In this document: positions 12,866-36,457 of the stretch, in pieces | How positions within the stretch are numbered: position 1 is the first letter of the stretch | Layout of the letters: each line of letters begins with the position of its first letter | NCBI RefSeq assembly: GCF_004342485.1 | Contig: NZ_SMBU01000005.1 | Coordinates: 1-64,000 of the forward strand | Source of the DNA: Roseateles saccharophilus | GTDB lineage: Bacteria; Pseudomonadota; Gammaproteobacteria; Burkholderiales; Burkholderiaceae_C | DNA length: 64,000 nucleotides | Reading direction: 5' to 3' | Notes under the pieces: model-generated | Seen by the model: only the letters and a program-made list of their open reading frames with translations | What the model was told of the DNA's origin: nothing | Database searches by the model: none | Translations under genes and position numbers: made by a program

Positions 12866-13196
12866 CCCCGCGGGCGACTCACTTTCTTGTGCGCACAAGA
12901 AAGTAAGCAAAGAAAGCGCCCCCGAACCGCCCGGCCCTTAGCTGCGCAGTGGGCTGCCCTGCGCTGCTCAGAGGGGGGAAGACAAATACCTCGTGCCAAA
13001 CGGTTTTCGGGTTTGGCTGTTGGCTGTTTCCACCGACCCCTTCGGCCAGAACGTAGATCGCCCGCAGGGACTGAGCCCGGACACAGGGCAGCCCACTGCG
13101 GGCTGGCCTGTGCCTGGCGAAGGGCTTGGCGAATGCAAGCGCCAAGCCAGAACTCCCGGCTGGGCCTGGCCGGAAAACCGAAGCAGCGAACAAGCA
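12866..13196. repeat. Non-coding structured intergenic repeat element
   Basis: This gene-free stretch lies between the two ABC genes. It holds a perfect palindrome at 12881-12904 (arms ACTTTCTTGTGC and its complement), then AAGCAAAGAAAG. It also holds a 17-bp perfect inverted repeat, 12945-12961 (CGCAGTGGGCTGCCCTG) with 13084-13100, able to close a stem of about 156 bases. Palindromes of this AAGAAAGTAAGCAAAGAAAG type recur between genes of Comamonadaceae and relatives. A 104-codon frame on the minus strand here looks spurious. It probably inserted into the operon. Confidence 0.65.
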
Positions 13197-35559: not shown

Positions 35560-35877
35560 ATGTCCATCCTGCGCTCCGCCACCGTGCTCGCCGCCAGCCT
35601 GATGCTGGCCCTGGCCGCCCACGCCACGCCCAAGGTCATCAAGAAGGTGCCGCCCGACTTCCCGCGCGAGGCCGTGCAGAAGGGCATCTCCACCGGCGTC
35701 GTCAAGGCCAAGCTGACCATCGAGGCCGATGGCAAGGTCAGCGACGTCGAGATCGTCGAGGCCGAACCCAAGCGCGTCTTCGACCGCGCCGTGAAGCAGG
35801 CCCTGATGGACTGGAAGTTCGAGCCGGGCGAGAAGGCGACGCACGAGGTCAAACTCGTCTTCAAGAACGAGGACTGA
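35560..35877 (+). CDS. Exported TonB C-terminal-domain protein
   Basis: This 105-residue protein has a signal peptide (MSILRSATVLAASLMLALAAHA) and then only a TonB C-terminal fold: PKVIKKVPPDFPREAVQKGISTGVVKAKLTI through VKQALMDWKFEPGEKATHEVKLVF. It lacks the membrane anchor and proline-rich linker of true TonB, so it cannot transmit energy itself; it may compete for or cap TonB-box partners, which is inference. It follows the chemoreceptor by 29 bases and may be co-transcribed. Confidence 0.85.
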   Translation: MSILRSATVLAASLMLALAAHATPKVIKKVPPDFPREAVQKGISTGVVKAKLTIEADGKVSDVEIVEAEPKRVFDRAVKQALMDWKFEPGEKATHEVKLVFKNED

Positions 35878-36031
35878 GTGAGCGCCGAGGACAGGCCCTG
35901 CGGCCTGTCCGACGGCTCACGAAGGCCATGCGCCATGCTGGGCGCATGGCATGAGTAGAGACCGAGAACAGCGCCTGCGCGCTGTTCGACGCGTTACGAA
36001 GGACAGACGGCATGCAGGCCGTCTGGCATGA
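35878..36031. repeat. Tandem pair of 77-base double-hairpin units with covarying stems
   Basis: Unit 1 (35878-35954) and unit 2 (35955-36031) align without gaps. Each has two 9-base stems: GGACAGGCC/GGCCTGTCC and CCATGCGCC/GGCGCATGG in unit 1, GAACAGCGC/GCGCTGTTC and ACAGACGGC/GCCGTCTGG in unit 2. Loop CTGC, linker GACG..TYACGAAGG-like, second loop ATGCnG and tail CATGA are conserved while stem bases change in compensating pairs. The pair fills the spacer between convergent genes. Confidence 0.85.
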
Positions 36032-36061: not shown

Positions 36062-36457
36062 TCAACGACCTGCGCGGACCGGGTTGTCCGACGCGGCATG
36101 GGGCCACCAATGCGCCCCGCCCACCGCCACCAGCAGCACCGCGACGACGGCGCCGGCCGCAAGACTCAGGCGCCGTTTTCTTCTGGCCTGGCGCACGCGC
36201 AGGCTGCCGACCCCGGCGGCCTCGCGCATCGCGGAGTGCTGCTGGAGCCGGGGCAGGCGCTTGAGGCTCACGGCCTGCTTGCGGCCGTCACGGCCGGTCA
36301 CAATTTCGAAGCTGAGCGGCTCGTCCAGCCGCGGGCCCTCGCCATCGGTGGGAAAGGCCGCCAGTGCCACGAACACCTCTTCGCCCCCACCCAGCGGGCG
36401 GATCGTGCCGTAGCCGGCATCGTGGTTCCACGCGCTCAATACACCTTCGAATCTCAT
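36062..36457 (-). CDS. Cold-shock-domain protein with C-terminal membrane anchor
   Basis: This 131-residue protein starts MRFEGVLSAWNHDAGYGTIRP, a cold-shock (CspA-like) OB fold to about residue 68, although the RNP1 GYGFI is GYGTI here. A basic linker (RVRQARRKRRLS) and one membrane helix (about 96-116, AAGAVVAVLLVAVGGAHWW) follow. Relatives usually carry a two-helix DUF1294 domain after the cold-shock domain; this one is shorter. It may tether RNA or DNA to the membrane, which is inference. Confidence 0.85.
   Translation of the reverse strand: MRFEGVLSAWNHDAGYGTIRPLGGGEEVFVALAAFPTDGEGPRLDEPLSFEIVTGRDGRKQAVSLKRLPRLQQHSAMREAAGVGSLRVRQARRKRRLSLAAGAVVAVLLVAVGGAHWWPHAASDNPVRAGR

What the first reader, a model, noticed from the sequence alone, without database searches (positions are those of the whole stretch)
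35878..36031. Tandem 77-base units with two hairpins each, stems covarying while loops stay fixed
The two units align gaplessly. Nearly all differences lie inside stems and are compensated on the other arm (for example GGACAGGCC/GGCCTGTCC versus GAACAGCGC/GCGCTGTTC), while loop CTGC, linker ending ACGAAGG and tail GCATGA are kept. Covariation within one locus implies selection on folding rather than on sequence. I do not recognise it as a known family. It could be a bidirectional transcription end for the convergent genes, an RNA, or a DNA hairpin recognised by a transposase-like enzyme.
Basis: seen in the sequence. Interest (0 to 1): 0.8.

Follow-up and report, generated by a model that had tools for sequence, protein, structure and literature searches.

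The report
Stop-codon-tagged two-hairpin repeat family
A 77-base, two-hairpin DNA repeat has spread through this bacterium and its relatives by settling directly behind the stop codons of unrelated genes; it is a new variant of the known bacterial palindromic repeats, and what copies it is unknown.

Summary
Window 35878-36031 holds two exact 77-base units of a dispersed repeat family. Each unit has an outer 6-bp stem around a 9-bp hairpin (loop CTGC), a GAAG linker, a second hairpin (loop NTGCAR) and a GCATGA tail. Infernal finds 30 matches at E<=0.001 in the window's own genome and matches in 20 of 20 genus genomes (1-39 each). It also occurs in 43 of 200 family genomes. Rfam gave no match. 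On 55 aligned copies, 54 of them not used for the model, all 23 predicted pairs covary.

(1) The unit begins at the TGA stop codon of the upstream gene: 119 of 139 copies have at least 100 open codons in frame, against 23 of 80 CTGAG sites in the window. (2) Orthologous sites are mostly empty: 0 of 19, 1 of 19 and 0 of 14 relatives are filled at three loci. (3) Terminator-like hairpins remain downstream, so the unit is not the terminator.

Best reading: a non-autonomous REP-like mobile repeat lying in 3'UTRs, mobiliser unknown. The genome's only PF01797 match is a TIR-flanked RAYT with no unit nearby.

The parts
35875..35877 (+). TGA stop codon of the TonB_C gene, which is also the TGA that precedes unit 1
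   Evidence: 119 of 139 TGA-starting copies have >=100 open in-frame codons upstream
35878..35954 (+). Unit 1 of the repeat (77 bp: GTGAGC ... GCATGA), CM score 103.3 bits
35955..36031 (+). Unit 2 of the repeat (77 bp), CM score 97.7 bits; outer stem partly unpaired
35878..35883 (+). Unit 1 P1 5' arm GTGAGC, pairs with GCTCAC 35915-35920
   Evidence: 6 of 6 P1 pairs have a two-sided change in A5
35889..35910 (+). Unit 1 hairpin 1 (P2, 9 bp), loop CTGC 35898-35901; flanked by the conserved internal loop sides (ACCGA consensus, here GCCGA, 35884-35888; GACG 35911-35914)
35921..35924 (+). Conserved GAAG linker
   Evidence: column frequencies
35925..35950 (+). Unit 1 hairpin 2 (P3, 10 bp), loop ATGCTG 35935-35940
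35951..35954 (+). Unit 1 tail ATGA, whose TGA precedes unit 2
35560..35877 (+). Upstream gene, 105-aa TonB_C-domain protein; its orthologues carry or lack the unit
   Evidence: PF03544 51.8 bits
13072..13153 (+). Diverged copy of the same three-helix module (51.7 bits) inside a larger composite palindromic repeat, not at a long ORF's stop (5 open codons)

Best explanation
The two units are copies of a dispersed, non-coding, REP-like repeat of 77 bp. SHOWN by comparison of filled and empty orthologous sites (gain by parsimony at sites A, D and E): a copy stands directly after a TGA, usually the stop codon of a gene and usually followed by G, in one fixed orientation, without loss of host bases as far as the diverged spacers align. 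It ends in its own TGA, and copies stack head to tail at exactly 77 bp. The host gene stays intact and the unit becomes part of its 3'UTR. INFERRED: the fixed loops and linkers (ACCGA/GACG, CTGC, GAAG, NTGCAR, CATGA) and the foldedness of the sense strand are what the copying machinery recognises, while stem letters are free as long as they pair; after insertion the copy largely decays. The mobiliser I think most likely (about 0.4) is an HUH/Y1-type single-strand nuclease acting in trans on the folded strand, cutting after TGA at both ends, by analogy with IS200/IS605 and REP/RAYT. It is not identified. Any benefit to the host, such as mRNA 3'-end protection, would be secondary.
For: Dispersed: 30 matches at E<=0.001 in the own genome, 1-39 per genome in 20 of 20 genus genomes, 133 upstream proteins falling into 86 clusters. 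Empty sites: site A filled in 0 of 19 relatives although the gene end is 97% identical in G005; site D in 1 of 19; site E in 0 of 14; TonB in 7 of 18; MFS in 6 of 18. Target: 119 of 139 copies at stop codons (118 of 138 distinct units) against 23 of 80 CTGAG sites in the window (Fisher p 2e-17); C before TGA in 124 of 139 and G after it in 127 of 139, against 45 and 30 of 114 for TGAs behind >=200 open codons in the window. Tandem arrays at exactly 77 bp (four units at G017:C23:143182-143493). Structure: 93.2% of cells paired and covariation score 0.622, against at most 0.082 for slid partners; all 23 predicted pairs covary. Sense strand: GT 70 against AC 27, p 1.5e-5, while in loops G-to-A changes exceed C-to-T. 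Loops, about 9-16% different among copies (stems 39-41%), change as fast as stems at fixed orthologous sites: 8.7% against 6.1%; core loop columns 5.0% against 6.0% (Fisher p 0.004 against the ratio among copies).
Against: No mobiliser found. The genome's single PF01797 match, a RAYT, is flanked by GGGGTCGGAGTC inverted repeats and not by units. Among 200 family genomes, 28 of 43 with units have a PF01797 match against 119 of 157 without units, and G140 and G240 with 20 and 18 matches have none. No transposition was observed. Some sites are shared by several species, and 13 of 24 changed pairs at orthologous sites keep pairing, so some local constraint is possible. The loop-against-stem result is weak if one decayed pair is removed (5 of 180 against 27 of 432). 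TGA on both sides of the unit means target duplication cannot be told from an element-borne TGA. In other genera only 16 of 32 TGA-starting matches follow a long open frame.
Confidence: 0.72

Rival explanations
1. A cis-acting 3'UTR RNA (mRNA 3'-end protection, RNase or protein binding site), kept by selection at each gene and only secondarily dispersed.
For: Units follow stop codons in sense orientation and lie before a terminator-like hairpin at the MFS site and site A. Sense-strand wobbles are favoured. Some sites are shared: TonB in 7 and MFS in 6 of 18 relatives. One ortholog pair, G000/G005 at site D, shows G4-C46 changed to A4-T46.
Against: Presence varies among close species, and I saw no functional theme among 86 upstream clusters. 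Copies at fixed sites lose pairs (9 of 24 changed pairs broken on one side, 2 other) and loop letters.
Confidence: 0.2
2. Intrinsic or bidirectional transcription terminator for convergent genes.
For: Strong GC hairpins between the TonB_C gene and an ORF on the minus strand that ends at 36062.
Against: No T-run after the window's units. A separate hairpin plus T-rich run lies downstream at the MFS site in filled and empty species, and after the unit at site A.
Confidence: 0.04
3. RAYT-mobilised REP of the GTAG or CGTC super-families.
For: An NF047646 REP-associated tyrosine transposase is present. GTAG REPs can supply a stop codon and show complementary stem variation and GT pairs (PMC3733652). 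GACG next to hairpin 1 reads CGTC on the other strand.
Against: No GTAG tag; the GACG lies in an internal loop. The RAYT has a TIR motif beside it in 7 of 7 same-genus loci examined and no unit nearby. 15 of 43 unit-bearing family genomes lack a PF01797 match at E<=0.001.
Confidence: 0.15
4. Stem covariation is produced mainly by replication template switching inside palindromes, with little selection on folding.
For: A published mechanism makes multibase compensatory changes in one event (PMC8794818, abstract and opening).
Against: It does not explain the GT-over-AC strand asymmetry, the fixed loops, or insertion at TGA.
Confidence: 0.1

Closest known systems
GTAG- and CGTC-tagged REPs (repetitive extragenic palindromes), PMC3733652
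   Same: Dispersed palindromes 3' of genes, complementary stem variants, GT pairs, copy-number differences between relatives; GTAG REPs can provide a TAG stop codon to flanking ORFs
   Different: 77 bp with three helices; CTGAG/TGA at both ends in place of a GTAG tag; tandem head-to-tail stacking with shared TGA; no unit next to the transposase gene
IS200/IS605-derived non-autonomous elements (recalled family logic)
   Same: Orientation-specific insertion 3' of a short target, hairpins near both ends
   Different: No relative of an IS end was identified and no Y1 gene is linked; TGA at both ends leaves target duplication undecided
BIME-type composite palindromic repeats
   Same: Diverged modules occur inside larger mosaic repeats
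   Different: The stop-codon copies are free 77-bp units

Membership tests
REP (Di Nocera et al. definition) | Single 20-40 bp palindrome | tested here: not met
   77-bp unit with two hairpins and an outer stem
REP (Di Nocera et al. definition) | Unpaired GTAG tag at one end | tested here: not met
   Left end is C-TGA-G, C in 124 and G in 127 of 139; no GTAG in the column consensus
REP, CGTC super-family | CGTC tag beside an 8-9 bp stem whose first two pairs are almost invariably AT | tested here: inconclusive
   GACG (CGTC on the other strand) abuts the 9-bp P2, but lies in an internal loop, and the first P2 pair is mostly G-C (column 15 G 96%, column 36 C 93%)
REP | Dispersed, mostly 3' of genes, complementary stem variation with GT pairs | tested here: met
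REPtron / RAYT-linked REP | RAYT gene flanked by the repeat | tested here: not met
   Own RAYT with about 3.5 kb on each side and six same-genus RAYT loci with about 1.5 kb: no unit; TIR motif instead
IS200/IS605-type non-autonomous element | Site-specific insertion 3' of a short target, fixed orientation | tested here: met
   Filled/empty site comparison
IS200/IS605-type non-autonomous element | No target-site duplication | tested here: inconclusive
   TGA lies on both sides; element-borne or duplicated cannot be told
IS200/IS605-type non-autonomous element | Cleavage by a Y1 transposase of the folded strand | not testable with these tools
   Needs purified enzyme
Intrinsic terminator | GC hairpin followed by a T-run | tested here: not met
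   Sequence after the window's units and after the units of site A and the MFS site
Rfam RNA families | Match to a curated covariance model | tested here: not met
   No match at gathering score in the window, nor at E<=0.5 in 14 loci
Bacterial SECIS (considered) | UGA read as selenocysteine with the ORF continuing | tested here: not met
   At the five loci compared, orthologous genes without the unit end at the same codon, some with TAA or TAG

The most novel reading that the evidence does not exclude
A class of miniature mobile element specialised for stop codons: it recognises C-TGA-G on the coding strand, inserts exactly behind the stop, brings its own TGA so that further copies can stack, and is moved by machinery that is neither RAYT nor any Y1 transposase, possibly through its transcribed RNA.
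Probability: 0.2. Interest if true: 0.78.

Novelty: new variant of a known kind. Interest (0 to 1): 0.55.

Why it matters
It adds another tag type (TGA/CTGAG) and a three-helix layout to bacterial palindromic repeats, with filled and empty sites that make target choice directly testable. It offers a natural experiment on how an element avoids harming its host by settling behind stop codons. It also gives a worked case in which textbook covariation may reflect copying requirements of a mobile element and not a per-site RNA function, which is a caution for covariation-based RNA discovery.

Tried and rejected
Tried without result: the first pattern for the own genome was mis-spaced (0 hits) and so was the first window pattern (0 hits); both were corrected. 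Of the 112 stretches hit by the half-unit pattern in genome contigs (one search listed 80 of them; all 112 are loci, and were printed) I judged only L055, L064, L074 and L102 true homologues, by eye; in the 11 viral-contig hits I saw no unit. An intramolecular loop-loop pairing (CTGC with GCAG) and a loop-tail pairing (ATGC with GCAT) are possible by sequence, but the loops hardly vary, so they could not be tested. RAYT as partner: unsupported. Terminator and selenocysteine readings: rejected. One search (paper search on template switching) gave nothing of use; one search gave PMC8794818.

Limits of the counts: numbers per genome are lower bounds (searches scored at most 77, 23 and 18 candidates per genome with stricter filters; G008 has one weak match and none). 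The 37 matches at E<=0.05 include at least one antisense echo, hence I use the 30 at E<=0.001. The 160 matches contain a few seen twice in overlapping loci; cmsearch drops tandem units that overlap by 4 bases. The pair statistics use 112 (then 92 after 90% redundancy removal) ungapped units that passed a filter of at least 19 of 25 standard pairs (18 for tandem second units); GT counted as standard there, which favours GT over AC somewhat; the weakly paired pair 52-75 was left out. The 12, 11 and 10 orthologous pairs were picked by hand from the clusters for high identity and share some members. One search used 133 upstream proteins of 160 matches. In one search, 84 of 139 copies were also open for >=100 codons in the +2 frame, which is background in this GC-rich DNA. 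Filled/empty calls cover the relatives whose DNA I fetched; G010 was matched at TonB, MFS and site E but not fetched there. A possible decayed remnant (G007 at TonB, G005 at MFS) counts as empty. Comparing assumes both drew the same 200 genomes (the handles agree); genomes missing from the matched list were taken as without a match.

Full report
OBSERVATION. Window 35878-36031 consists of two gapless 77-base units. Each folds as an outer 6-bp stem (P1) around an internal loop (ACCGA on one side, GACG on the other) and a 9-bp hairpin (P2, loop CTGC), then a GAAG linker, a 10-bp hairpin (P3, loop NTGCAR) and the tail CATGA. Both units fold better than shuffles (z -5.8 and -3.3).

A FAMILY OF REPEATS. 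A pattern search in the window's own genome gave six strict copies on five contigs. A covariance model was built from 12 units found by eye. With it the own genome gives 30 matches at E<=0.001 (37 at E<=0.05, at least one of these an antisense echo). All 20 genomes of the genus have matches (1 to 39, the single one of G008 weak), as do 4 of 16 other genomes of the family and 1 of 24 of the order, the last one weak. A wider sample gives 43 of 200 in the family, 30 of 141 genera, and 9 of 250 in the order, own genome included. Tandem units are spaced by exactly 77 bases, for example four at G017:C23. Rfam has nothing, at gathering score in the window or at E<=0.5 in 14 loci.

STRUCTURE. On the 12 starting units 95.3% of cells pair and 17 of 25 pairs have two-sided changes; slid partners pair at 30-37%. 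On alignment A5 (55 rows, of which L251 repeats the training unit L064) 93.2% of cells pair, 24 of 25 pairs have two-sided changes, and the covariation score is 0.622 against at most 0.082 for slid partners. RNAalifold on its own predicts 23 pairs, all 23 with two-sided changes. That alignment was fitted to the model, so it leans towards the structure; the slide control is the fairer guide. G.T pairs outnumber A.C mismatches on the sense strand, 70 to 27 (p 1.5e-5), while in loop columns G-to-A changes (18 of 644) exceed C-to-T (8 of 552), so mutation bias does not explain it. The sense strand, as RNA or single-stranded DNA, is the one that folds.

POSITION. Of 160 matches in fetched loci, 142 begin with TGA. 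Of the 139 with enough upstream DNA, 119 have at least 100 open codons in frame with that TGA, against 23 of 80 CTGAG sites in the window (Fisher p 2e-17). C precedes TGA in 124 of 139 and G follows in 127 of 139, against 45 and 30 of 114 for window TGAs behind at least 200 open codons. The 133 upstream proteins compared fall into 86 clusters, among which I saw no common function. In other genera the link is weaker: of 37 distinct matches 32 begin with TGA, and 16 of these 32 have 100 open codons. There some copies belong to larger composite repeats.

INSERTION. For five loci of the own genome I fetched orthologous gene ends in its relatives and called units with the model. Site A (L173): 0 of 19 relatives filled, G005 among the empty with a 97% identical gene end. 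Site D (L172): 1 of 19. Site E (L175): 0 of 14. The TonB site of the window: 7 of 18. The MFS site: 6 of 18. Read by eye, the filled sequence is ...TGA-[77 bp ending in TGA, at site A in TCA]-next bases, and the bases that follow resemble those after the TGA of empty sites to within a base or so; the spacers are diverged. At the MFS site a GCCGGC-type hairpin with a T-rich run stands downstream in filled and empty species; at site A the own genome also has one behind the unit. The unit therefore lies inside the 3'UTR there and is not the terminator.

WHAT IS CONSERVED AND WHY. Between copies, loops differ by 16.4% and stems by 40.6% (92 copies), or 12.6% and 39.0% among 60 well-paired copies. 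Between orthologous copies at one site, loops differ by 8.7% and stems by 6.1% (12 pairs). With only 20 strongly conserved loop columns it is 5.0% against 6.0% (10 pairs; Fisher p 0.004 against the ratio among copies). So the loops do not look strongly protected once a copy sits at a site; their conservation across the family points to what is needed to be copied. The test is small, and it weakens if the pair L211/L248 is removed (5 of 180 against 27 of 432). At 11 orthologous pairs, 24 base pairs changed: 6 compensated, 7 kept by a one-sided change, 9 broken, 2 other. Some constraint at the site is therefore not excluded. A published mutational route to compensatory changes, template switching, exists (PMC8794818, abstract and opening read).

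MOBILISER. The own genome has one PF01797 match, a REP-associated tyrosine transposase (NF047646, 88.4 bits over a cut-off of 80). It is flanked by inverted AAAATGGGGTCGGAGTC repeats. The motif GGGGTCNGAGTC stands on one or both sides in 7 of 7 same-genus loci examined (both sides in 3), and there is no unit near them. This resembles the TIR-flanked type described in PMC3733652 (section 16). In the family, 28 of 43 unit-bearing genomes have a PF01797 match against 119 of 157 without units; G140 and G240 carry 20 and 18 matches to the unit and have none. RAYT is thus not supported as the mobiliser, and none is identified.

COMPARISON. The closest known kind is the REP (PMC3733652; abstract, sections 5-8, 15 and 16 read): 3' location, complementary stem variants, GT pairs, and termini of GTAG REPs that supply a TAG stop codon. 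The unit differs in length, architecture, tag and tandem habit, and lacks a linked transposase gene. IS200/IS605 logic (recalled; the abstract of PMC8266576 was read) fits the oriented insertion. Paper searches listed, among the titles and abstract beginnings shown, no description of this family; one search showed 8 of 72 papers and one search showed 12 of 14, and the library is the held open one only.

VERDICT. A real repeat family that I did not find described: a new variant of bacterial palindromic mobile repeats, tagged by and placed behind TGA stop codons. The dispersal and the presence/absence at TGA are shown; the copying enzyme and any host benefit are not.

Noticed in passing
window 12870-13170: Composite palindromic repeat (ACTTTCTTGTGCGCACAAGAAAGT and further inverted arms) that contains a diverged copy of the three-helix module at 13072-13153; related composites of several hundred bases were seen in loci of G017, G009, G004, G012, G013 and G016.
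   Followed up: partly
L140:3756-4612 (own genome contig C29): A RAYT gene framed by inverted AAAATGGGGTCGGAGTC repeats (a TIR-flanked tyrosine transposase); the motif recurs beside the gene in six other genus genomes.
   Followed up: partly
L396 (G221:C3, about 218.5 kb): Four near-identical tandem copies at a 91-base period that start, by eye, at a gene's stop codon: a different unit length in another genus.
   Followed up: no
L390, L391 (G140) and L392 (G064): Modules in inverted orientation about 440-460 bases apart inside mosaic palindromic repeats; genes between them were not looked for.
   Followed up: no
L393-L395 (G143): Nearly identical copies within a longer repeat, several at contig ends, which suggests recent amplification of a composite form.
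   Followed up: no
L172 downstream of the unit: A second P1-like stem with hairpin 1 missing (CAAGGACCGAGACGCCTTGCGAAGG), as if hairpin 1 had been cleanly deleted from a tandem unit.
   Followed up: no
L327 (G012) and L333 (G002), TonB site: Two species that share several other units hold units with entirely different stems at the same orthologous stop codon, and in both the outer stem could extend over the TGA (TGA..TCA): independent insertions or rapid replacement.
   Followed up: no
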